Assembly: GCA_035573435.1 (NCBI GenBank)
Contig: DATMZR010000037.1
Span: forward strand, 1-64,000
DNA: 64,000 nucleotides
Source of the DNA: Solirubrobacterales bacterium
Lineage (GTDB): Bacteria > Actinomycetota > Thermoleophilia > Solirubrobacterales > 70-9
Direction of reading: 5' to 3'
The position numbers and the translations under genes are program-made. A model generated the notes under the pieces. It was not told the origin of the DNA and did no database searches. It saw only the letters and a program-made list of their open reading frames with translations. Shown piece after piece: positions 1 to 45,299 of the stretch (position 1 is its first letter; every line of letters begins with the position of its first letter).

Positions 1-1643
1 AAGACGACCTCGCGCGGCACCTTGTAGCGGGCGAGCTTCGCCTTCACGTGGGCCTTGATGTCCGCCTCGCCGAGCTTCGCATCCGGCGCCGTGACGACGA
101 ACGCCTTCAGGCGCTGGCCGAACTGCGCGTCCTCGACGCCGATGACCGCGACGTCGTCGACCGCGGCGTGATCGGCCAGCAGGTCCTCGACCTCGCGGGG
201 GAACACGTTCTCGCCGCCCGAGACGATCATCTCGTCGTCGCGACCGTCGATGAAGAGGCGCCCGCCGGCGTCGAAGTGCCCGACGTCGCCCGACGACAGC
301 AGCCCGCCCATGTTCTCCTTGCTGCCCCCACCGGTGTAGCCCTCGAAGGCCATCTCGTTGCCGACGAAGACACGGCCGGTCTTTCCGGGTGCGACGTCGT
401 TGCCGTCAACGTCCACGATCCGGACCGCCGTTCCGCGCGGCGGGCGGCCGGCGGTGCCCGGCGCAGCGCGCAGATCCTCCGGCGTCGCAATTGTCGCCCA
501 GGCCACCTCGGTGGACCCGTATAGGTTGTAGAGGTTGTCGCCGAAGGTGTCCATCCACTTGGTCGCGAGCTCACCCGGGAGCGCGGAGCCGCTCGCGGCC
601 ACCACCCGCAGGCTGGACAGGTCGTATCTGTCGAGCGTCTCGGGCGCCAGCTCCAAGATCCTCTGGATCATCACCGGAACGACCACTAGGGCGGTGGCGC
701 CCCTGTCCTGAGTGGCGCGCAAGGTCTCCTCGGGGTCGAAGCGGCGACGCAGCACGTAGGTGGAGTTGAGCGCCAAGCCAAGTGTGAAGTGCGCGAACCC
801 CCAGGAGTGAAACAGCGGGGCCGCGATCATCGTCAGCTCACCCGCCCGAAGCGGGATCTTGGAGAACATCGCCGCCAGCGGCCCCAGCGTGTCGGGCTGG
901 CCGCGCTGCGCCCCCTTCGGCGTCCCAGTGGTCCCGGAGGTCAGGATCACGAAACGGCTGGACTCGTCCGGCGGATCGAGGTCGCGGTCGTCGCTCGCCT
1001 CGATCAGGTCCTCGAGCCGGGTGTCCGTCACGTCGTCGTCACCGTCGGCCCAAGAGACGTAGCGGCGCAGGCCGATCTCGCTGCCGGCCTCCGCGGCCTG
1101 CTCGAGCAGGCCGCCGAACTCGGCGTCGTAGATCAGCGCCACCGGCGCCTCCCGCTCCACCACGCCCGCGAGCTGCGGGGAGGCGAAGGCGGTGTTCATG
1201 TACAGGCCGTTCGCTCCGAGCTTCGATACGGCGAGCGTCGCCTCCACGAAGCCGCGATGGTTCCGGCACATGATCGCGATCCCGTCGCCTTCGTGCACGC
1301 CCTCCGCGGCCAGCCCCCGGGCCAGCGCGTTGGACCGGCGGTGGATTTCCGCGAAGGTCAGGGTGCCGGCCTCGTCCTCGACCATGGCTTGGTCGGGATG
1401 ATTGATCGCCGCGCCCGTGATCCCGGCGGCGGGCGAGGCACCCCAGCGGGCCAGGACGCGGAACGTCAGGGCCAGCTTGTCGGGTCGCACCGGGCGGATC
1501 ACGCCGGCCTCGGCGAGGGTCCTGACATTGAACGGGACGTCGCTCAGAGGGCCGAGGCGGCCGAGCTTGACCCTACGGCCGAGCTGGCTCATCGGGCGCG
1601 TCACCAGGTCCGGGGAGAGCTTGCCGGCCAGCGAGCGAACCAT
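1..1643 (-). CDS. Acyl-CoA synthetase (AMP-forming, FadD-like), C-terminus outside window
   Basis: Activates a fatty or other carboxylic acid to its CoA thioester through an acyl-adenylate. About 547 residues are visible from an ATG at 1643; the gene runs off the left edge. The AMP-binding P-loop TSGTTGTPKG lies near residues 235-244, followed by the STEVAWAT adenylate motif and the hinge region SGGENVFPREVE; the visible sequence ends in the mobile C-terminal subdomain. A -10-like TAGGCT lies 9 nt before the ATG, so the mRNA may be leaderless. The N-terminal stretch of about 75 residues before the first conserved region recalls mycobacterial FadD2-type enzymes. Family assignment is firm; chain-length preference is unknown. 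Confidence 0.93.
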   Translation of the reverse strand, partial: MVRSLAGKLSPDLVTRPMSQLGRRVKLGRLGPLSDVPFNVRTLAEAGVIRPVRPDKLALTFRVLARWGASPAAGITGAAINHPDQAMVEDEAGTLTFAEIHRRSNALARGLAAEGVHEGDGIAIMCRNHRGFVEATLAVSKLGANGLYMNTAFASPQLAGVVEREAPVALIYDAEFGGLLEQAAEAGSEIGLRRYVSWADGDDDVTDTRLEDLIEASDDRDLDPPDESSRFVILTSGTTGTPKGAQRGQPDTLGPLAAMFSKIPLRAGELTMIAAPLFHSWGFAHFTLGLALNSTYVLRRRFDPEETLRATQDRGATALVVVPVMIQRILELAPETLDRYDLSSLRVVAASGSALPGELATKWMDTFGDNLYNLYGSTEVAWATIATPEDLRAAPGTAGRPPRGTAVRIVDVDGNDVAPGKTGRVFVGNEMAFEGYTGGGSKENMGGLLSSGDVGHFDAGGRLFIDGRDDEMIVSGGENVFPREVEDLLADHAAVDDVAVIGVEDAQFGQRLKAFVVTAPDAKLGEADIKAHVKAKLARYKVPREVV

Positions 1644-26433: not shown

Positions 26434-27633
26434 TCAGTCGCCGCCCTCGTGGGACTCGCGAGCCATGACGACGAACAGCTCCACCGGCTGGGGGAAGCCC
26501 TTCAGCTCGACCTCGCCGATCGGGTCGAACGTCAGGTAAGCCGACCTGCCGATTCCGTCGACGACAGCGGTTGTCACCATCACCTCCCCGCCGAGGGCGC
26601 GGGCAACCACGCGGTGCGCCAGGTTGACCTCGGTGCCGAAGTAGTCGCCGTCGCGATAGACCGCACGTCCGTAGTGCACGCCGACGCGCGGCTGGGGGCG
26701 TTCCTGAAACAAGGTCAGGAAGCCCACGGCCCACTCCGTGAGCGTCACGGGGTCGGGCGAGACGATCATCACCTCGTCGCCGATCGTCTTCACGATCGTC
26801 GCCTCGGCCGGCAGGGTGGCCTCCACCGTCTCGATGAACCGTTCCACGAGGTCGAACGCTTCCTCGTCGCCCTCCTCCTCGGTGTAACGGGTGAACCCCG
26901 TCAGATCGACGAAGCAGAACGTCATCTGCACCCGACCAAGCCGCTCCCCGCCCAACTCGGTCTCCATGTGGCCCACCACGTCCTGCTCCATGTAGAAGCG
27001 CAGGTAGCGCTGGTGGATGTACTCCATCAGCGGCGAGGTGATCGGCAGCAGGTCGCGCGCCAGTCCCTCCATCTCCTCGGCCATCTGGAGCGCGTCCACC
27101 CCCTGCCGGATCAGGGGCTCGTGGACGTACAGGTGGAAGAGGCGCACTTCGGCCTCTGCGATCTTGCGGATCGACTGGGCGTACACCCTGATCAGCTGCA
27201 GCACCGCGACCAGCGGGAAGCCGGCGCGAAGCACATCCGCGATCCGCTGCATCGCGATCAGGTCCTGATCGTTGAGGGTGCCCTCGATCGCGGTCGGCGT
27301 TCCCAGCAATGCCATGATCCGCTCGATCAGTGCTTCCTCCAGGCCGGCCTGCTCCGCGGCGTCGGTACGGGAATGAGCGCGCTCCCTCCCGGGGAGCAGG
27401 TCCTCCACATAGCCGAACGCCAGTCGGCCGTCGCGAACCGCCCGGCGAAGCTCCTCCAGCGAGTGGCCGCGCTCGCGCATCCGGGCGACGACGCGGGCCT
27501 GCGCGGCCGCGGCCGTGGTCCAGCGCCCTCCCTTGACCGGGACCACCCCGCCACGAGCCCAGCGCTGGAGGGTCGAAGGGGCCACGCCCGCGATCCGCGC
27601 GGCCTCGCTCAGGGAGATCAGGGCCTCCGCCAC
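26434..27633 (-). CDS. Class III adenylate cyclase with N-terminal MerR-like helix-turn-helix
   Basis: A 399-residue protein from GTG at 27633. Residues 5-65 are a MerR-type helix-turn-helix (SLSEAARIAGVAPSTLQRWARGGVV). A helical middle region follows (FHLYVHEPLIRQGVDALQMAEE). The C-terminal cyclase domain has both metal aspartates (CFVDLTGFT and KTIGDEVM) and the transition-state NLAHR. The lysine of KTIGD is at the adenine-selecting position, so ATP is the likely substrate. The open frame runs further upstream, but AGGAG four nt before the GTG fixes the start; that site lies in a hairpin. A DNA-binding domain on a cyclase could make it sense and regulate together. Confidence 0.88.
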   Translation of the reverse strand: MAEALISLSEAARIAGVAPSTLQRWARGGVVPVKGGRWTTAAAAQARVVARMRERGHSLEELRRAVRDGRLAFGYVEDLLPGRERAHSRTDAAEQAGLEEALIERIMALLGTPTAIEGTLNDQDLIAMQRIADVLRAGFPLVAVLQLIRVYAQSIRKIAEAEVRLFHLYVHEPLIRQGVDALQMAEEMEGLARDLLPITSPLMEYIHQRYLRFYMEQDVVGHMETELGGERLGRVQMTFCFVDLTGFTRYTEEEGDEEAFDLVERFIETVEATLPAEATIVKTIGDEVMIVSPDPVTLTEWAVGFLTLFQERPQPRVGVHYGRAVYRDGDYFGTEVNLAHRVVARALGGEVMVTTAVVDGIGRSAYLTFDPIGEVELKGFPQPVELFVVMARESHEGGD

Positions 27634-27634
27634 C

Positions 27635-27677
27635 GCTCCTATATATATGGAGCGACGGGGTCGCGCTACCCCGTCGC
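27635..27677 (-). promoter_or_regulatory. Two overlapping hairpins on the ribosome-binding site of the cyclase gene
   Basis: GCTCC and GGAGC arms enclose an ATATATAT run at 27635-27653; one arm contains the AGGAG ribosome-binding site. It shares two bases with a second hairpin, GCGACGGGGT/ACCCCGTCGC (10 bp, 27652-27677). The weak AU-rich loop and the sequestered site are what an RNA thermometer or switch would look like, but no test of this is possible here. Confidence 0.5.
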
Positions 27678-27872
27678 CCTGCGGGCTCGCGGCCCGCCGC
27701 GTCTGGCCGACGACGCTTTCGCGTCTTGCGGGCCCTCGCCTCCGCCTCAGTCGCCTCGAGCCGGCCGGCGAAGGCCCACTGCGGCCTGTCATTACATCTC
27801 AACCGCTCAGCCTACGCCCCCGCACCGATCCCGTCAATCCACACGCCCGCCTGGCAGTGAGGCGTCGGTCGG

Positions 27873-31540: not shown

Positions 31541-33994
31541 ATGAGACGGAAGCTTCTACTCACCGTTGCCCTCGCGGTCCTCGGGACTGCGGTCACCGCG
31601 GCTGTCGTAAACGGCCAGGTTCAGGAGCCGCCCAGCGGCGGCGGGAGCATCAACGACGAAGGCCCGCCGCCCCAGCAGCTTTCGGCCTGCTCGAACAAGC
31701 AGGACGACGACGGCGACGGGCTGGTTGACATGGCCGACGCCGGCTGCTCCGACCCGTCCGACGGCGACGAGTCGAACCCCGCTCCTCCCCCTCCGCCCCC
31801 ACCTCCGGACGGGGGCGGCGGTGATGGCGGCGGCGGCTCCACGGGCGGCGGCGGTGGCGGAGGCTTCACCGGCGGCGGAGGCTTCACCGGCGGCGGAGGC
31901 GGAGCCGGGCCGGGCGGTCCCAGCGGAGCGGGCGGGCACGGAGCCGACCGGGCCGGCGGCGGCGGCACGTCGGGCGGCGCTGACGCGGGCGGCAAGCCTG
32001 CCGAGGCCGCGACGCGCACCTCCGACGGGGTCCCGACCAACGCGAACCCGAGCCTGACGATCGCCGACTTCGGCCCCGCCCCGATCGGCGTGCCGAGCTT
32101 CCTGATCGACCAGTTCACGATCCCGCCCTTCCTGCTCGACATCTACCAGGCGTGTGGCACCCAGTACGGGATTCCCTGGGAGGTGCTGGCGGCGATCAAC
32201 CGGATCGAGACCGCGTTCGGAACCAACCTCAACGTCTCGACTGCCGGGGCCGTTGGCTGGATGCAGTTCCTCCCCTCGACCTGGGACATGTACGGGGTGG
32301 ACGCCAACGGGGACCACCGCAAGGATCCCTACAACCCGGTCGACTCGATCTGCGCCGCGGCGCGCTACCTCAAGGCGGCGGGCGGCGAGGAGGACCTGCG
32401 GCAGGCGATCTTCGCGTACAACCACGCCGACTGGTACGTGGACGAGGTGCTGTTGTACGCCAGCCAGTACGGCGATCTACCCGAGGACCTGGTTGGTTCG
32501 CTCATCGGCTTGACGCACGGCGCCCACTTCCCCGTCGCCGCCAAGGCCCGCTACGCGGACGACATCTCCGAGCGCCGGGCCGCGAAGCGCGCCAAGTCGC
32601 GAAAGGGCGCGGGGAACGTCGCCGACGTCGTCACCAGCTCCCCCACGCGACGCGGGATCAACATCTACTCCCACAAGGGAGCGCCGGTGGTCGCCGTCAA
32701 CGACGGCACCATCAAGCGGGTCGGCCACAACTCGAAGCTGGGCAACTTCATCGTCCTCCAGGACACCTATGGCAACCACTTCATCTACGCCCAGTTGGGC
32801 CGGGTCTCGAAGGCCTACCCGGTGCCGAAGCAGCACAAGCTCTCGGCCTCCGACTTCAAGCTGGTCACCCCGAAGAAAGACAAGAAGCCCACTCAGCCCG
32901 CGACCCGCGGCAATGAGTCGCCCGACCGCGCTGGCAAGAGCAAGGCCAGCGCAGGGCCCCGGAACACCGAGGACGCGCGCCAGCGGCTTTATGCCCTGCC
33001 GCAGCGTCCCCACAACCTGGATCGCGCCGACATCACGGGCCAGCTCGACCAGCTGCTGTCCAAGAAGTTCCCGGGCTACGAAACCGTCAAGTCGTACTTC
33101 GGCGGCATCCTCCACTTCGACCGCGACTCGATGGAGCTGCGAAGGCTGCGGAAGGGGTCGCAGGTCGTCGCGGGCACCGTACTGGGGCGGATCGGCAAGA
33201 CCGGCAAGCTTGCGCCGCACGTCAACTTCGCCATCCGGCCCGCCGGGCGCGGCGCTCCGCGGATCGATCCGAAGCCGATCCTGGACGGCTGGAAGCTGCT
33301 CGAGGCGACGGCGATCTACCGCGCCGCCGGCAAGAACCCGTTCTCGTACTCGAGCACCAACGTCAGCCAGATCCTGCTGATGCCGAAGGCGGAGCTCGAG
33401 CGCCGGGTGCTCGCCGATCCGCGCCTCTCGATCTACGAGTGCGGGCGAACCGACATCCGCACCGGTCAGGTCGACCAACGGCTCCTGGGGGCGATGGAAT
33501 ACCTGGCCGGCAACGGATTCAGGCTGACCATCACCTCGCTCAAGTGCGGCCACAGCACTTACACGACGTCGGGGAACGTGAGCGAGCACTCGACCGGCGA
33601 CGCGATGGACATCGCCGCGGTGAACGACATCCCGATCCTCGGCAATCAGGGCAAGGGCTCGATCACGGAGGCGGTGCTCGACACCCTGCTGCGCCTCCAG
33701 GGCACCATGCAGCCGCACCAGCTGATCTCGCTGATGAACCTTGGCGGGCCATCGTTCGCAATGGCCGACCACGCCGACCACATTCACGTCGGGTACTACC
33801 CGCAGGGCCAGGCACCCGGGGCGAAGAAGCAGTTCGTCCAGCTCCTGAAGCCGGACCAGTGGCGGCATCTGATCGGGCGGATCGCCCAGATCGACAACCC
33901 GAACGTGCGCACCTCGCCGTCGCGCTACTCGATCCCCGCGAGCAAGCACAAGCACCATCCCAAGCGCGCCAGCGCCGCCCACCGCGGCGACTAG
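31541..33994 (+). CDS. Secreted cell-wall enzyme: transglycosylase, degenerate M23 and M15-like peptidase domains
   Basis: 817 residues. 1-25 signal peptide; 48-78 a Ca-binding style DDDGDGLVDMADAGC segment; 80-150 a Pro/Gly linker; 185-300 a lytic transglycosylase domain with catalytic-type glutamate in INRIETAFG (E223); 360-425 and 535-590 two halves of an M23 (LytM) domain split by about 110 residues; 630-755 an M15-type D,D-carboxypeptidase domain with SEHSTGDAMD (681-690) and HIH (747-749). The M23 zinc site looks lost: H/D become R370/N374, the YAHL histidine becomes Q418, and the HxH second histidine becomes N562. It probably remodels peptidoglycan with one active glycosidase and one active peptidase domain. 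It is followed by an unknown gene in the same direction. Confidence 0.88.
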   Translation: MRRKLLLTVALAVLGTAVTAAVVNGQVQEPPSGGGSINDEGPPPQQLSACSNKQDDDGDGLVDMADAGCSDPSDGDESNPAPPPPPPPPDGGGGDGGGGSTGGGGGGGFTGGGGFTGGGGGAGPGGPSGAGGHGADRAGGGGTSGGADAGGKPAEAATRTSDGVPTNANPSLTIADFGPAPIGVPSFLIDQFTIPPFLLDIYQACGTQYGIPWEVLAAINRIETAFGTNLNVSTAGAVGWMQFLPSTWDMYGVDANGDHRKDPYNPVDSICAAARYLKAAGGEEDLRQAIFAYNHADWYVDEVLLYASQYGDLPEDLVGSLIGLTHGAHFPVAAKARYADDISERRAAKRAKSRKGAGNVADVVTSSPTRRGINIYSHKGAPVVAVNDGTIKRVGHNSKLGNFIVLQDTYGNHFIYAQLGRVSKAYPVPKQHKLSASDFKLVTPKKDKKPTQPATRGNESPDRAGKSKASAGPRNTEDARQRLYALPQRPHNLDRADITGQLDQLLSKKFPGYETVKSYFGGILHFDRDSMELRRLRKGSQVVAGTVLGRIGKTGKLAPHVNFAIRPAGRGAPRIDPKPILDGWKLLEATAIYRAAGKNPFSYSSTNVSQILLMPKAELERRVLADPRLSIYECGRTDIRTGQVDQRLLGAMEYLAGNGFRLTITSLKCGHSTYTTSGNVSEHSTGDAMDIAAVNDIPILGNQGKGSITEAVLDTLLRLQGTMQPHQLISLMNLGGPSFAMADHADHIHVGYYPQGQAPGAKKQFVQLLKPDQWRHLIGRIAQIDNPNVRTSPSRYSIPASKHKHHPKRASAAHRGD

Positions 33995-34030: not shown

Positions 34031-34891
34031 GTGACCCCCCGCTTCGCCTGCGTGCAGCTGGATGTGCCGGGCCACCTCGGGCTCGACGACGGCCGCTACC
34101 TGCTGCGCGGCGCAGCGAGCGAGGAGCCGGAAACGGTGGTTGTGGTGCAGACGCTCGGCGGCACCCCGGCGGGCGGCCGCCGCCGTCAGCGCCCGCGCCC
34201 CGCCGCCCCTCCCGATGAGCCGCCCGAAGTCCCTGTGACGCGCCTCACCGTGATCCCGGCCGAGCCCTCAGAGCCCGATGGCGCAGCGCGAGAGCTCCAG
34301 CGAATCAGCGGTGACCTTGAGGCCGCCGAGTCGCGGGTGGCAGCGGCGCTCGGAGCGGTCAATTCTGTGTTGCGCGCGCATCGGGTCGCCACCGCCGATC
34401 CCTACGGTCACGAGATCGGGCGCGAGGCGGTTCTGGTTGCTCGAGTTGGGTACGGGAGCGGCGACGGACTGGCCGAAGGGCGCTGGGAAGAGGCCGTCGA
34501 GGTCGCCCCGCCGGCGCGTCGGCGCCGCCGAGCCGAGGCCCTGCGGCCTCAGGAACGGCTGGCGGCCGTGCTCGCCCGTCGGGAGCCGATCGATGTCTGC
34601 GAAACGCTGCTACTGCGGGCGCGCGCCGACTTCGACCAGGAGCGCCCCCGGGAGGCTGCGCTTCAGCTTCGGGCCGGGCTCGAGGCGCTGCTCGCCGAGG
34701 TCCGGGGGGATGCAGGGTCCGACCAGGCGGAGGACCTCGCTGCCCTCCGAGAGCGTCTCGCAGGCACCGTCGAGGCGGCCGGCGAGGCACTTGCCGGCGA
34801 GCTCGACGCCGAGCGCACCGAAGAGCTCGCCGAGACGCTCGCCGTCTGCGAGCGGGTCCTGCGCCGCCGCCAGATCCTCCGCCCGAGCTAG
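34031..34891 (+). CDS. Protein of unknown function (286 aa)
   Basis: 286 residues from GTG at 34031, 36 nt after the cell-wall enzyme. The first 45 residues form a beta-rich block (FACVQLDVPGHLGLDDGRYLLRG, then VVVVQTLGG). A basic/Pro linker follows (GGRRRQRPRPAAPPDEPPEVP). From residue 90 the protein is largely helical: an acidic coiled region, then ADPYGHEIGREAVLVARVGYGSGDG, and a helical C-terminal half rich in Arg and Glu. I recognise no family. Codon use looks normal for the region. The structured repeat begins 17 nt after its stop. Confidence 0.6.
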   Translation: MTPRFACVQLDVPGHLGLDDGRYLLRGAASEEPETVVVVQTLGGTPAGGRRRQRPRPAAPPDEPPEVPVTRLTVIPAEPSEPDGAARELQRISGDLEAAESRVAAALGAVNSVLRAHRVATADPYGHEIGREAVLVARVGYGSGDGLAEGRWEEAVEVAPPARRRRRAEALRPQERLAAVLARREPIDVCETLLLRARADFDQERPREAALQLRAGLEALLAEVRGDAGSDQAEDLAALRERLAGTVEAAGEALAGELDAERTEELAETLAVCERVLRRRQILRPS

Positions 34892-38008: not shown

Positions 38009-39043
38009 CTACGGGATTCCGAACACGGTCTCGCAGTTGAGCGCGGTGTCGGTGCCCTCGTCCCCGTGGCATTCGTCGGTGTCCGGGCCGCCGTTGACAG
38101 AATCGTCCCCATCGCCGCCGAACAGCAGGTCGTCCCCGCTGCCGCCCTGAAGGGCGTCCTCGCCGTAGTCGGCTCGGAGGATGTCGGCGCCCGCAGCGCC
38201 GTTGACCACGTTGTCCCCGCTGCCCGCGTTTATCACGTTGGCCGCGGCACTGCCGGTTAGGTGATCGCCGTTGTAGGTGCCGACTAGGTTCTCCAGCGAG
38301 GTGGCGAGATTGTCGCCTTCGCACTGCTGCGGGCAGTTGACGCCGTCGTTCGCGGTGCCGTCGAGCGAAGCTGTTACTGCGCTCCCGTAATAGCGGTAGC
38401 TCGCCGTATCGATGTCGGCTCCACCGCGATAGACGTCGGGCGTCGAGTCCTGGTCGGGAAACACCGTGTCCTTTCCGTCGCCGCCATCGACGACGTCGGT
38501 GCCCGTGCCTCCCACGAGCTCGTCGTCATCGCCTGCGTCTCCGAAGATCTGGTCGGCACCGTCCTGGCCGTAGATCTCGTCGTTGCCCCCCTGAGCCTGA
38601 CCCGGAGTGTCCCCGTGAAGGACGTCGTTCCCGTCGAGGCCGTCGACGTAGTCGTTCCCTCCGTCGCCCTGCACCCTGTCGTTGCCTTCCTCGCCATAGA
38701 GGCTGTCCGACTGCTTGCCCCCGGACAGCTTGTCGCTCCCGAGTCCGCCGCCGACCACGTCGAGTCCGATGCCGCCCTTGGCGCGATCCTTGCCAGGACC
38801 TGCGCAGATCCGGTCCGGACCTCCCTTGCCGTTGACCGTGTCGTTGCCACGACCGGTGTAGATCACGTCTGGCCCGTTGGTGCCGGTGATCCTGTCGGCG
38901 TGAGTGGTGCCCTTGATCGTGGGCTTCTTGCCAAAGCATGCTGCCTGCGCCGACGTGGCGCCAACCAGACCCACGGCAGCCAGCGCCATGCCCAGGACCA
39001 GCGCCATTCCTCTCCGGGTCCGCGGGTACGTGCTTGATTGCAT
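38009..39043 (-). CDS. Secreted RTX (hemolysin-type calcium-binding repeat) protein
   Basis: 344 residues from ATG at 39043, preceded by AGGAGGG at seven bases. A signal peptide (RRGMALVLGMALAAVGLVGATSAQA) is followed by a Cys-containing start and roughly a dozen nine-residue GGxGxDxUx repeats in two blocks (about residues 60-190 and 255-320; e.g. GGNDEIYGQDGADQIFGD, GGSGDDLLFGGDGDD). Such repeats bind calcium in a parallel beta-roll. No enzymatic or lipase domain is attached, so it is likely a surface or matrix protein, not a toxin. Confidence 0.88.
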   Translation of the reverse strand: MQSSTYPRTRRGMALVLGMALAAVGLVGATSAQAACFGKKPTIKGTTHADRITGTNGPDVIYTGRGNDTVNGKGGPDRICAGPGKDRAKGGIGLDVVGGGLGSDKLSGGKQSDSLYGEEGNDRVQGDGGNDYVDGLDGNDVLHGDTPGQAQGGNDEIYGQDGADQIFGDAGDDDELVGGTGTDVVDGGDGKDTVFPDQDSTPDVYRGGADIDTASYRYYGSAVTASLDGTANDGVNCPQQCEGDNLATSLENLVGTYNGDHLTGSAAANVINAGSGDNVVNGAAGADILRADYGEDALQGGSGDDLLFGGDGDDSVNGGPDTDECHGDEGTDTALNCETVFGIP

Positions 39044-39163
39044 CTCGATTCCCTCCTGACCGTTTGCGGTTGCTGACAGCCGCATCGTCGGTCGCCCGAA
39101 GGCAATCCACCAGCCACCCTAGGGTGATATCTGCCACACCCGGGCACGAGACCGGTCGCAGCG

Positions 39164-42749: not shown

Positions 42750-43144
42750 TGGGTAGCTACTCGGTCGCCAAGCGGGAGGAAGCCATCGATTGGATGGCCG
42801 ATTTCCCGGGATTCGGCGAGATGCGCTGGTACTCGGACGCCCTCGGCACCGAGCAGGTGTCGTTCAGCTGGCGGACGATGCCGCCCGGGACCGGCGGACG
42901 CGGCAGCTATGGCCACCGCCACCCCGGTCAGGAGGAGGTCTTCTTCGTGATCGCCGGCCGGGTCACGTTCAAGATCGACGACGAGATCTTCGAGGCCGGC
43001 CCGCAGACCGCGGTGCGGATCGGCGGCGATGCGTACCGCTCGATCCACAACGACAGCGACCAGCACGCGCAACTGCTCCTCTTCTCGACCCGGGACCCGG
43101 ACGCCCGTACGGAGCAGACCGAGGAATTCTGGCCCTCGAGCTAG
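42749..43144 (+). CDS. Cupin-domain protein
   Basis: 131 residues from ATG at 42749, with GGGAGG at a short distance. The cupin motif 1 is GHRHPGQEEVFFVIAGRVTFKID (G-x-H-x-H then E and G) and motif 2 is present as YRSIHNDSDQHAQLLLF; the two histidines and glutamate of the first motif are intact, the second has a histidine. Probably a small metal-dependent enzyme or sugar-binding protein; function not assignable. The ATG overlaps the previous stop by one base. Confidence 0.82.
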   Translation: MGSYSVAKREEAIDWMADFPGFGEMRWYSDALGTEQVSFSWRTMPPGTGGRGSYGHRHPGQEEVFFVIAGRVTFKIDDEIFEAGPQTAVRIGGDAYRSIHNDSDQHAQLLLFSTRDPDARTEQTEEFWPSS

Positions 43145-43154
43145 CAGGCGACGC

Positions 43155-44150
43155 TCAGGACAGAACGACGTAGAGCGGGAAGACCCCGTACAGCGCTCCC
43201 CAGCCGACGATCGCCGCCAGATTGAACCGCCCCTGAAGCCGTAGCGCCCAGTAGGCGAGCGCCCCGCCCGCGAGCCCGAGGACAGCCGAGACGAGCGCGA
43301 AGTCGTCCAGGTCCCAGCCGGTGAACGTCAGGCCGAACGCCACCGGGATCGTGGACTGGAAGACCATCGCGCCGGTGATGTTCCCGAGCGCCAGGCTGTC
43401 CTTCCCCTCGCGGACCCAGAAGAAGCTGTTCGCCTTCTCGGGCAGCTCGGTGGCGAGTGGGGCCAGGACGAGCGAGAGGACGAGCGCCTCCACCCCGAGC
43501 GATTCTGCCGCCTCGATCACCTCCTGCACGAACATGTGGGCGCCCCCCAACATCGCGCCCAGGCCGACCAGGAGCTGGATCGCGATCGTCCTCCCCGTCG
43601 GCTCGAGGCCCGGGTCCCGAGCCAGGGTCAGGGGACGGATCGCCTCGGGGGCCTCGACCTCGCCGCCGGCCCGCAGCGTCGTTCTGACGTAGAGCACGTA
43701 GGCGCTCAGGAAGGCGGCCGCGAGCACGATCCGCACCCCCTCGGGCGCGCCCAGCCCGAGCACCGTGGCAAGGCCGAAGAAGCACAGGAAGACGAGCAGG
43801 TCTCGCTCGAGCGTCGGGGCGTGAGCGGCGAGTCGCAATCCCTGCGGGCGGCGCCGCCGATAGCCGAGGGCGGCAAGGCCGACGAGCGCCATCGCGATCG
43901 TCGCGAGCAGGAACGGCGCCCCGATGATCGCGCCAACCGCGACATCGTGGGCGCCCGACTCTCCTTCGAGCACCGCAACGATGGGGATCAGCGTCTCCGG
44001 CATCGCGGTTCCAACCGCGGCCAGCAGGCTTCCCACGGCTCCCTGCCCGAGAGCCAGCCGTTGGCCTGCCCACTCGACGGCGTTGGTGAACAGCAGGGCG
44101 CCGGCGAGGATCACCGCGAAGCTCGCCAGCAGGAGGATCGCCGTTCCCAT
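43155..44150 (-). CDS. CaCA-superfamily cation exchanger (sodium/calcium type)
   Basis: 331 residues, about ten transmembrane helices. The two alpha repeats are seen as AVGTAMPETLIPIVAVLEGE (near residue 46) and APLATELPEKANSFFWVREGK (near residue 250), each with the acidic residue that binds the cation. The cytoplasmic loop in the middle is short. It is 12 nt after the neighbouring exchanger and probably co-expressed with it; ion and direction are not determinable. Confidence 0.88.
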   Translation of the reverse strand: MGTAILLLASFAVILAGALLFTNAVEWAGQRLALGQGAVGSLLAAVGTAMPETLIPIVAVLEGESGAHDVAVGAIIGAPFLLATIAMALVGLAALGYRRRRPQGLRLAAHAPTLERDLLVFLCFFGLATVLGLGAPEGVRIVLAAAFLSAYVLYVRTTLRAGGEVEAPEAIRPLTLARDPGLEPTGRTIAIQLLVGLGAMLGGAHMFVQEVIEAAESLGVEALVLSLVLAPLATELPEKANSFFWVREGKDSLALGNITGAMVFQSTIPVAFGLTFTGWDLDDFALVSAVLGLAGGALAYWALRLQGRFNLAAIVGWGALYGVFPLYVVLS

Positions 44151-44162
44151 TCGCGCGCGTCT

Positions 44163-45299
44163 CTAAGCGAACCCGAAGGCGAGAGCGAGGATCACGTACA
44201 CAGCGAGCAGCTGCACTCCCTCGAACCAGGTCGACTCCCCCTCGTGCGTGACGTAGTTGGCGATCAGCACCGCCAGGATCACCGCGCCCAGCTCGAATCC
44301 GTTGAAGACGAGCGCCATCGGCTCCGGGCCGAGGATGAACGAGACGAAGACCAGGATCGGGGCCACGAACAGCGCCACCTGAGCGCTCGAGCCGATCGCG
44401 ATGTTCACCGCCAGGTTCATCTTGTTCTTGTGCGCGACCAACACCGCGACCCAGTGCTCGGCCGCGTTGCCGACGATCGCGATCACGATCACCCCGATGA
44501 AGAACTCGCTCAGCCCCACCGACTCGGATGCTTCCGAGATCGACCCCACGAGCACCTCGGACATCACCCCCACGAAAATCCCCGCCACGGCAAGCATCAG
44601 GATCGAGCGGCGCGCGGACCAGCCGAAGGCGGGCTCCTCGCGCGGACCCTCGGGCGGATTGAAGATGTCGCGGTGGGTCCTGAGCGAGAACAAGAGCCCG
44701 GCGAGGTAGGTGGCGGCGAGCACTACAGCGACCGCGAAGGAGAGATGCTCGACCGTGGAGCCGTAGTCCACCCGCTCGGCGTTGACGGAGGGCAAGCCCT
44801 GGCCCTCGACCAGCTCGAAGATCGCCGGCATGGCCAGCGCCGCCACGGCGAGGAACAGCATCAGCGACTGGACGTTGGCGGCGGTGGCGTTGAAGTGCTG
44901 CCGGTCGCGTCCAATCCCCCCGACGAACATCGCCGCTCCGAGCACCAGCAGGATGTTGCCGATGATCGATCCGACGATCGAGGCCTTGACGACCTCCTGA
45001 AGGCCCTCGCCAAGCGCGAACAGGGCGATGATCAGCTCGGGAGCATTGCCGAAGGTGACGTTCAGGAGGCCCCCGATCCCGGGGCCGGAGCGCGTCGCGA
45101 GCTCCTCGGTGGCGAGGCCCATGAGCGCCGCGGTCGGGATGATCCCCAGCGCCGCGGTGATGAAGATCGCCGTCGCCGAGGCATTCGCAAGGTCCAGCGC
45201 GATCGCGACCGCAATGAACGGAACCAGCAGGTACGGCCACCCCTGCGCGGTGAGCAGGAAGCCCAGGCCGCGCGCGTCGCTTGCTCCACCGTTCGCCAT
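44163..45299 (-). CDS. Calcium/proton exchanger (CAX family)
   Basis: 378 residues, ATG at 45299, about eleven helices. Hallmark CAX segments: LNVTFGNAPELIIALFALGEG (near residue 80) and VIVIAIVGNAAEHWVAVLVAHKNKMNLA (near 265), each with the key GNxxE. Predicted to export Ca2+ (or other divalent cations) against protons. The gene is divergent from the aldo/keto reductase, and the following exchanger is from another branch of the same superfamily, so this is not a recent duplication. Confidence 0.93.
   Translation of the reverse strand: MANGGASDARGLGFLLTAQGWPYLLVPFIAVAIALDLANASATAIFITAALGIIPTAALMGLATEELATRSGPGIGGLLNVTFGNAPELIIALFALGEGLQEVVKASIVGSIIGNILLVLGAAMFVGGIGRDRQHFNATAANVQSLMLFLAVAALAMPAIFELVEGQGLPSVNAERVDYGSTVEHLSFAVAVVLAATYLAGLLFSLRTHRDIFNPPEGPREEPAFGWSARRSILMLAVAGIFVGVMSEVLVGSISEASESVGLSEFFIGVIVIAIVGNAAEHWVAVLVAHKNKMNLAVNIAIGSSAQVALFVAPILVFVSFILGPEPMALVFNGFELGAVILAVLIANYVTHEGESTWFEGVQLLAVYVILALAFGFA

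What the first reader, a model, noticed from the sequence alone, without database searches (positions are those of the whole stretch)
31541..33994. Cell-wall enzyme combining transglycosylase, a degenerate and split M23 domain, and M15-like peptidase
The M23 zinc residues are replaced (R370, N374, Q418, N562) and the domain is split by about 110 residues, while the transglycosylase glutamate E223 and the M15 residues H683, D690, H747 and H749 are kept. Catalytically dead LytM domains elsewhere act as amidase activators, so the middle domain may be regulatory or substrate-binding.
Basis: partly seen in the sequence, partly recalled or inferred. Interest (0 to 1): 0.6.

Follow-up and report, generated by a model that had tools for sequence, protein, structure and literature searches.

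The report
Three-domain wall enzyme with dead middle
A group of soil and water bacteria carries a secreted cell-wall-cutting protein in which the first domain always keeps its catalytic residue, the middle domain has lost its metal site in every copy examined, and the last domain usually keeps its metal site; the middle domain probably steers or restrains its neighbours, as two known proteins elsewhere do.

Summary
The 817-aa ORF encodes a secreted protein with an MltB/SLT_2-type transglycosylase domain (E223 kept), an M23/LytM domain split by about 110 residues with all three zinc ligands replaced (R370, N374, N562), and a C-terminal LAS/M15-like domain with its HxxxxxxD and HxH motifs kept. 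AlphaFold2 builds a LytM fold around the split, closest to StM23, DipM and EnvC. The architecture is fixed in the order Solirubrobacterales (30 of 33 genomes sampled; none of 116 others of the class). No copy has an intact M23 site (0 of 101). The SLT glutamate is kept in 111 of 111; the M15 triad is lost in 11 of 111. So SLT is the constant enzyme. The LytM end and following helix are the most conserved segment, so this is no relic. Best reading: the pseudo-LytM regulates or positions the attached SLT (and M15) in cis, as in PrgK (dead LytM dampens the SLT beside it) and as DipM does in trans. Activity and regulation are inferred, not shown. A new variant of a known kind.

The parts
31541..33994 (+). 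Whole gene: secreted SLT - split pseudo-LytM - M15-like protein, 817 aa
   Evidence: 110 loci each with one long ORF matching it
31541..31615 (+). Signal-peptide-like N-terminus (res 1-25)
   Evidence: read from the sequence: basic start, hydrophobic stretch, A-rich region; no predictor run
31679..31753 (+). Acidic double-disulfide repeat (res 47-71), probably ion-binding
   Evidence: NF033662, E 5.7e-6, below its cut-off
31778..32020 (+). Pro/Gly-rich linker (res 80-160)
   Evidence: sequence
32096..32494 (+). SLT / MltB-like transglycosylase domain (res 186-318); E223 at 32207-32209
   Evidence: Glu in 111 of 111 distinct homologues
32636..32812 (+). Pseudo-LytM half 1 (res 366-424); R370, N374, Q418 in place of HxxxD and YxH
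32813..33148 (+). Insert splitting the LytM domain (res 425-536), low confidence in the model, variable length; contains a short conserved R-L-Y/F-A-x-P motif near res 482-487
33149..33286 (+). Pseudo-LytM half 2 (res 537-582); HxH reads H560-V-N562
33227..33331 (+). Most conserved segment of the protein (res 563-597): F-x-I-R-P-A-G-R-G-A-P-x-I-D-P-K-P-I-L-D-G-W-K-L-L-E plus the following helix
   Evidence: mean commonest-residue frequency 0.874; helix in the model
33395..33820 (+). LAS/M15-like metallopeptidase domain (res 619-760); H683, D690, D746, H747, H749
33821..33991 (+). Basic C-terminal tail (res 761-817)
   Evidence: net charge +9 in the query

Best explanation
A chromosomal, apparently vertically inherited, secreted peptidoglycan hydrolase of Solirubrobacterales. 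The MltB-like SLT domain cuts glycan strands (inferred from fold and an invariant Glu). The C-terminal LAS/M15-like domain cuts stem peptides or cross-links in most members (inferred from motif and fold; lost in some). The split LytM domain binds no catalytic zinc (shown at sequence level). It most likely acts in cis: its groove or the conserved helix behind it docks on the SLT (and perhaps the M15) domain, or on the wall, and restrains or positions the enzyme, as the dead LytM of PrgK does in cis and DipM does in trans. Direction (inhibition or activation) is not known.
For: Zinc triad lost in all 101 homologues, yet the fold is kept with Z 16.0 to DipM and 15.3 to EnvC. The second LytM half plus helix is the most conserved stretch. 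The SLT Glu is invariant in 111 of 111 while M15 ligands are lost in 11 of 111, from 5 genera in 3 families, so the SLT is the constant enzyme. R566, which aligns with the R of DipM's FEMR (R589 by the paper's numbering, needed for DipM function), is R or K in 111 of 124 rows, though active StM23 has it too. The LytM halves are basic and the SLT acidic in the query (+6, +7, -12). Precedents: PrgK (PMC11323569, abstract and passages) and DipM (PMC10336132, abstract, passages and sections 9-10).
Against: No biochemical evidence. No inter-domain contacts could be read: the model file and PAE are not given. R566 is not diagnostic of regulators. Charges vary widely between members. The conserved helix could bind a trans partner instead.
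Confidence: 0.5

Rival explanations
1. The pseudo-LytM is a peptidoglycan-binding and spacing module: it holds the substrate or sets the reach between the SLT and M15 active sites, without changing catalysis allosterically.
For: PrgK's paper says its three extracellular domains can bind peptidoglycan in vitro. The strand beside the degenerate groove keeps hydrophobic positions 403 and 404. Repeated loss of M15 activity with the fold retained suggests folds kept for binding.
Against: The most conserved part is the end of the domain and the following helix, not the groove, which looks more like a protein interface.
Confidence: 0.27
2. One reading: the pseudo-LytM activates a separate amidase in trans, like EnvC or NlpD.
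For: LytM fold close to EnvC (Z 15.3) and DipM (Z 16.0).
Against: No Amidase_3 in the window's genome or in 8 of 9 genomes tested; present in only 15 of the 93 order genomes with a match to the family profile.
Confidence: 0.06
3. The pseudo-LytM docks a different trans partner (divisome or wall-synthesis protein) and serves to localise the enzyme.
For: DipM also binds FtsN and is recruited to midcell (PMC10336132). The conserved helix could be a docking site.
Against: No conserved neighbouring gene with an envelope role was recognised.
Confidence: 0.12
4. The LytM domain is an unselected relic on its way out.
For: Zinc positions 374, 418 and 562 drift freely; a more divergent form exists (L145).
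Against: Y416 (101 of 101), D408, F563 and P567 (124 of 124 each) and the 563-597 block are conserved across the order.
Confidence: 0.04
5. The LytM domain is catalytic through a non-canonical metal site.
For: R370 is conserved (87 of 101), D374 is kept in 22 and H562 in 18.
Against: Only one His column above 50% in residues 330-600 (H560); no member has all three ligands.
Confidence: 0.01

Closest known systems
PrgK of Enterococcus faecalis plasmid pCF10 (PMC11323569; LytM structure 8s0u)
   Same: One chain with a degenerate LytM, an SLT-type domain and a third wall-hydrolase domain; the LytM and third domains dampen the SLT; its LytM is a fold match (Z 11.6)
   Different: Order is LytM-SLT-CHAP, membrane-anchored, part of a conjugation system; here SLT-LytM-M15, secreted, chromosomal, LytM split by an insert, third domain usually with an intact metal motif
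DipM of Caulobacter (PMC10336132; 7qrl)
   Same: Zinc-less LytM of the same fold (Z 16.0); acts on a lytic transglycosylase and binds a carboxypeptidase as well as an amidase
   Different: Separate protein acting in trans, with LysM domains; not fused to its targets
EnvC (4bh5, 6tpi)
   Same: Degenerate LytM fold (Z 15.3)
   Different: Activates amidases, with FtsEX; that amidase class is absent in most carriers here
MltB / Slt35 (1ltm, 1d0k)
   Same: SLT domain fold and sequence (E 3.3e-8; Z 12.8)
   Different: Here only the catalytic core region, fused to two further domains
MepA, VldE, Hedgehog and other LAS folds
   Same: C-terminal domain: MepA Z 8.2 with 130 aligned at 3.6 A; VldE Z 8.0; Hedgehog 7.7; HxxxxxxD and HxH motifs
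   Different: Weak sequence similarity; own subfamily, only sub-threshold Extensin-like_C in Pfam
SLT-M23 fusions with intact M23 in other Thermoleophilia (L146, L147, L150, L153)
   Same: SLT followed by M23; three of the four (family f7) are the nearest SLT outgroup outside the order in the tree
   Different: M23 motif intact and unsplit, no M15

Membership tests
Peptidase M23 / LytM | LytM beta fold | tested here: met
   9gy1 Z 16.9, rmsd 2.3 over 120 residues, model range 162..423
Peptidase M23 / LytM | Zinc motifs HxxxD and HxH | tested here: not met
   R370, N374, H560-V-N562; no intact triad in 101 homologues. Hence a pseudo-enzyme of the fold, not an M23 peptidase
LytM regulators (EnvC, DipM) | Degenerate zinc site on a LytM fold | tested here: met
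LytM regulators (EnvC, DipM) | Binds and modulates a hydrolase | not testable with these tools
   needs biochemistry
Amidase activators of the EnvC/NlpD kind | An Amidase_3 partner in the genome | tested here: not met
   none found in the window's genome (97% complete); 78 of 93 order genomes with a match to the family profile lack it
PrgK / conjugative T4SS wall hydrolases | LytM-SLT-CHAP order, membrane anchor, conjugation genes around it | tested here: not met
   order is SLT-LytM-M15; no conjugation gene among the 20 neighbouring ORFs scanned with Pfam
SLT_2 / MltB lytic transglycosylase | SLT fold with catalytic Glu | tested here: met
   SLT_2 58.8 bits against a cut-off of 24.3; Glu in 111 of 111
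SLT_2 / MltB lytic transglycosylase | 1,6-anhydro products (lytic, not muramidase, activity) | not testable with these tools
   PrgK shows that SLT domains can be muramidases
M15 / LAS metallopeptidase | HxxxxxxD and HxH motif | tested here: met
   H683, D690, H747, H749; triad H683/D690/H749 in 100 of 111
M15 / LAS metallopeptidase | LAS fold | tested here: met
   best rows are all LAS folds: MepA Z 8.2, VldE 8.0, Hedgehog 7.7, 1lbu 6.8; Foldseek best E 1.6e-3, so moderate only
Pfam Extensin-like_C / Peptidase_M15_4 | Score over Pfam cut-off | tested here: not met
   window member 18.5 bits against 25.4; 36 of 37 members hit Extensin-like_C at E up to 0.1, with a best E of 0.00095; 5 of 37 hit Peptidase_M15_4, best E 0.016

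The most novel reading that the evidence does not exclude
Solirubrobacterales, which mostly lack Amidase_3 amidases, use this protein as a self-regulated main wall-cutting enzyme: a fused, cis-acting version of the DipM hub in which the pseudo-LytM holds the SLT (and M15) off until the conserved post-LytM helix is released by a division or wall signal. In one genus five genomes lack the protein, and each of those five carries two Amidase_3 genes, as if the two systems replace each other.
Probability: 0.12. Interest if true: 0.65.

Novelty: new variant of a known kind. Interest (0 to 1): 0.45.

Why it matters
It offers a natural single-chain test of how a dead LytM domain talks to a lytic transglycosylase, a question so far studied with DipM in trans and with a plasmid protein, PrgK. 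Repeated loss of the M15 site with the fold retained gives a second natural pseudo-enzyme series. It also shows that pseudo-LytM domains persist across an order that mostly lacks the amidases they are usually said to activate.

Tried and rejected
Amidase activation as the general role was rejected on genome content. An alternative zinc site was rejected. An architecture unique to this window was rejected: it is order-wide. A family outside the order was looked for: only one such locus in 296 phylum genomes (G389:C48, L151, on a 3.7-kb contig of a 340-contig genome; may be a binning error).

PDB sequence profile of the M15 domain gave nothing (best E 0.99). Several A3 profile hits to designed trefoil proteins are chance, short repeats of one 24-residue stretch. 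VIA-align of the full model barely tested the M15 part, so it was folded alone.

The SLT tree has few firm forks (6 of 28 starred) and long branches; the idea that the protein descends from an SLT-M23 fusion with an active M23 rests on one 94/83 fork and is only a lead.

Conservation of EnvC/DipM groove residues is not diagnostic: the Arg is also in active StM23.

The literature searches on Thermoleophilia, Solirubrobacterales or Solirubrobacter with wall-hydrolase terms found nothing on this protein; the searches for SLT/M23/M15 or inactive-LytM fusions found DipM but no such protein. PrgK surfaced. A search for Extensin-like and M15 endopeptidases found no paper. The M. tuberculosis M23 paper (PMC8594824, passages) concerns an intact M23 and did not help.

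Script errors: the second M15 test was badly written and is not used; gaps shown at H683 for some rows come from a length-fixed alignment, and one search replaces them. The synteny count keeps only the best hit per locus and is a lower bound.

Full report
What is there. The ORF at 31541-33994 (+) encodes 817 residues. It has a signal-peptide-like start, an acidic disulfide repeat (NF033662, weak), a Pro/Gly-rich linker, an SLT_2/SLT domain, an M23 domain matched in two stretches, and a C-terminal domain with M15 motifs.

Zinc site. A profile of 37 homologues aligned to the active hydrolase StM23 (9gy1) puts R370 on the first zinc His, N374 on the Asp, and H560-V-N562 on the HLH. Among 101 distinct homologues, none has His at 370. 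R is there in 87. The number of canonical ligands (370, 374, 562) kept is 0 in 72, 1 in 18, 2 in 11 and 3 in none. The only column of residues 330-600 with His in over half of the rows is H560.

Fold. AlphaFold2 on a 76-row alignment (75 of 78 available homologues plus the window) gives pTM 0.76. The LytM halves have 10-residue blocks mostly at 82-95 and the insert mostly about 40-55. VIA-align to solved structures: StM23 Z 16.9 (2.3 A, 120 residues), DipM 16.0 (2.7 A, 139), EnvC 15.3 (2.5 A, 123), PrgK LytM 11.6 (3.0 A, 117); Slt35 (1ltm) Z 12.8 (3.4 A, 139) for the SLT part. The M15 part folded alone (37 rows, pTM 0.74) matches only LAS folds near the top: MepA Z 8.2 (3.6 A, 130), VldE 8.0, Hedgehog 7.7. 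Foldseek alone gave no match under E 0.001, so this is moderate evidence, helped by the HxxxxxxD and HxH motifs.

Distribution. The search for related loci found 359 relatives and kept 80 loci, with titles such as Solirubrobacterales, Solirubrobacteraceae, Conexibacter, Patulibacter and Thermoleophilaceae; one of the 80 (L090) is titled Bifidobacterium breve but is a MAG contig. In the class sample of 149 genomes, 30 of 33 genomes of the window's order have a match over the three domains, in one or two pieces of one frame; of the 116 others 22 match, with SLT or M15 pieces and none over all three domains (my count). The LytM profile alone finds only ordinary M23s outside the order. In 296 phylum genomes one further locus outside the order has all three domains (L151). 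In 101 order genomes, 93 match the family profile at E up to 1e-40; not each was checked for all three domains. The neighbourhood is conserved: a co-directional unknown gene downstream in 33 of 63 eligible loci, a divergent coiled-coil gene upstream in 34 of 65, convergent enoyl-CoA hydratase in 36 of 58, always in the same orientation; these are lower bounds.

Which domain matters. In 111 distinct members the SLT Glu is present in 111. The M15 triad H683/D690/H749 is intact in 100 and lost or missing in 11, which come from G002, G038, G145, G161, G169 (two), G182, G210, G220 and G221 (two): five genera in three families. The LytM triad is intact in none of the 101 rows, and position 370 is His in 0 of 124 rows. 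The order of constraint is SLT, then M15, with the LytM site gone everywhere. Yet residues 563-597, the end of LytM and a helix, are the most conserved segment (0.874), against SLT 0.82, LytM half 1 0.632, half 2 0.725, insert 0.404 and M15 0.692. That pattern argues for a kept non-catalytic function.

Mechanism. Two published proteins frame it. [quoted passage not shown] the degenerate groove is the docking site (PMC10336132; abstract, passages and sections 9 and 10 read). PrgK carries a zinc-less LytM, an SLT and a CHAP domain in one chain, and LytM and CHAP reduce the SLT activity (PMC11323569; abstract and passages read). The window protein fuses a pseudo-LytM directly behind an SLT and in front of a peptidase, so regulation or positioning in cis is the simplest reading. 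It is inferred, not shown.

Amidase activation. Amidase_3 was not found in the window's genome nor in 8 of 9 genomes searched (the window's genome among them), though the search rings in 8 of 14 controls. In the order it is found in 20 of 101 genomes. Crossing: 15 of the 93 genomes matching the family have it and 78 do not; 5 of the 8 without a match have it. Those five are all in genus g30, each with two Amidase_3 hits. The other three (G009, G040, G173) are in 190-440 contigs, and G009 has pieces of the protein on separate contigs.

Origins. The SLT tree places the order's proteins next to SLT-M23 fusions with an intact, unsplit M23 in another family of the class (94/83), but most forks are open or unstarred and branches are long (sequences). 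The own-genome paralogue on C14 (L141) has SLT, a helical-looking stretch and M15 without LytM; SLT-M15 fusions without LytM occur in other actinobacterial lineages (L152, L154).

Verdict. Observation confirmed, interpretation partly supported. New variant of a known kind. Literature calls on this lineage's wall hydrolases and on such fusions found no description of this protein; most subscription papers are not in that library.

Noticed in passing
34031-34891 (+): Co-directional ORF just downstream, no Pfam match, conserved next to the gene in 33 of 63 eligible homologous loci (lower bound): a likely partner or operon member of unknown function.
   Followed up: partly
L141 (G000:C14), 631-aa frame: Own-genome paralogue with SLT, a helical-looking stretch and M15 but no LytM: a natural control for the role of the LytM domain.
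   Followed up: partly
L134, L135, L136, L205, L209, L214, L215, L220, L225, L010, L020: M15 domain has lost its zinc ligands (or is missing) in 11 of 111 members from five genera, with the SLT Glu kept.
   Followed up: yes
genus g30 genomes G158, G184, G195, G203, G212: Five genomes without a match to the protein each have two Amidase_3 hits; g30 relatives with the protein have one (G182, G210) or are not listed with any (G200, G217).
   Followed up: no
L145 (G037:C29): Divergent relative with SLT, a remnant LytM half, M15 and a long C-terminal region that looks propeller-like by eye.
   Followed up: no
38009-39085 (-): Secreted-looking protein of RTX calcium-binding nonapeptide repeats (8 stretches).
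   Followed up: no
26434-27792 (-): MerR-type helix-turn-helix fused to an adenylate/guanylate cyclase domain with an Ad_Cy_reg match.
   Followed up: no
43141-45240 (-): Long ORF of 699 aa without Pfam match; a 951-aa ORF overlaps on the other strand, so which is coding is unsettled.
   Followed up: no
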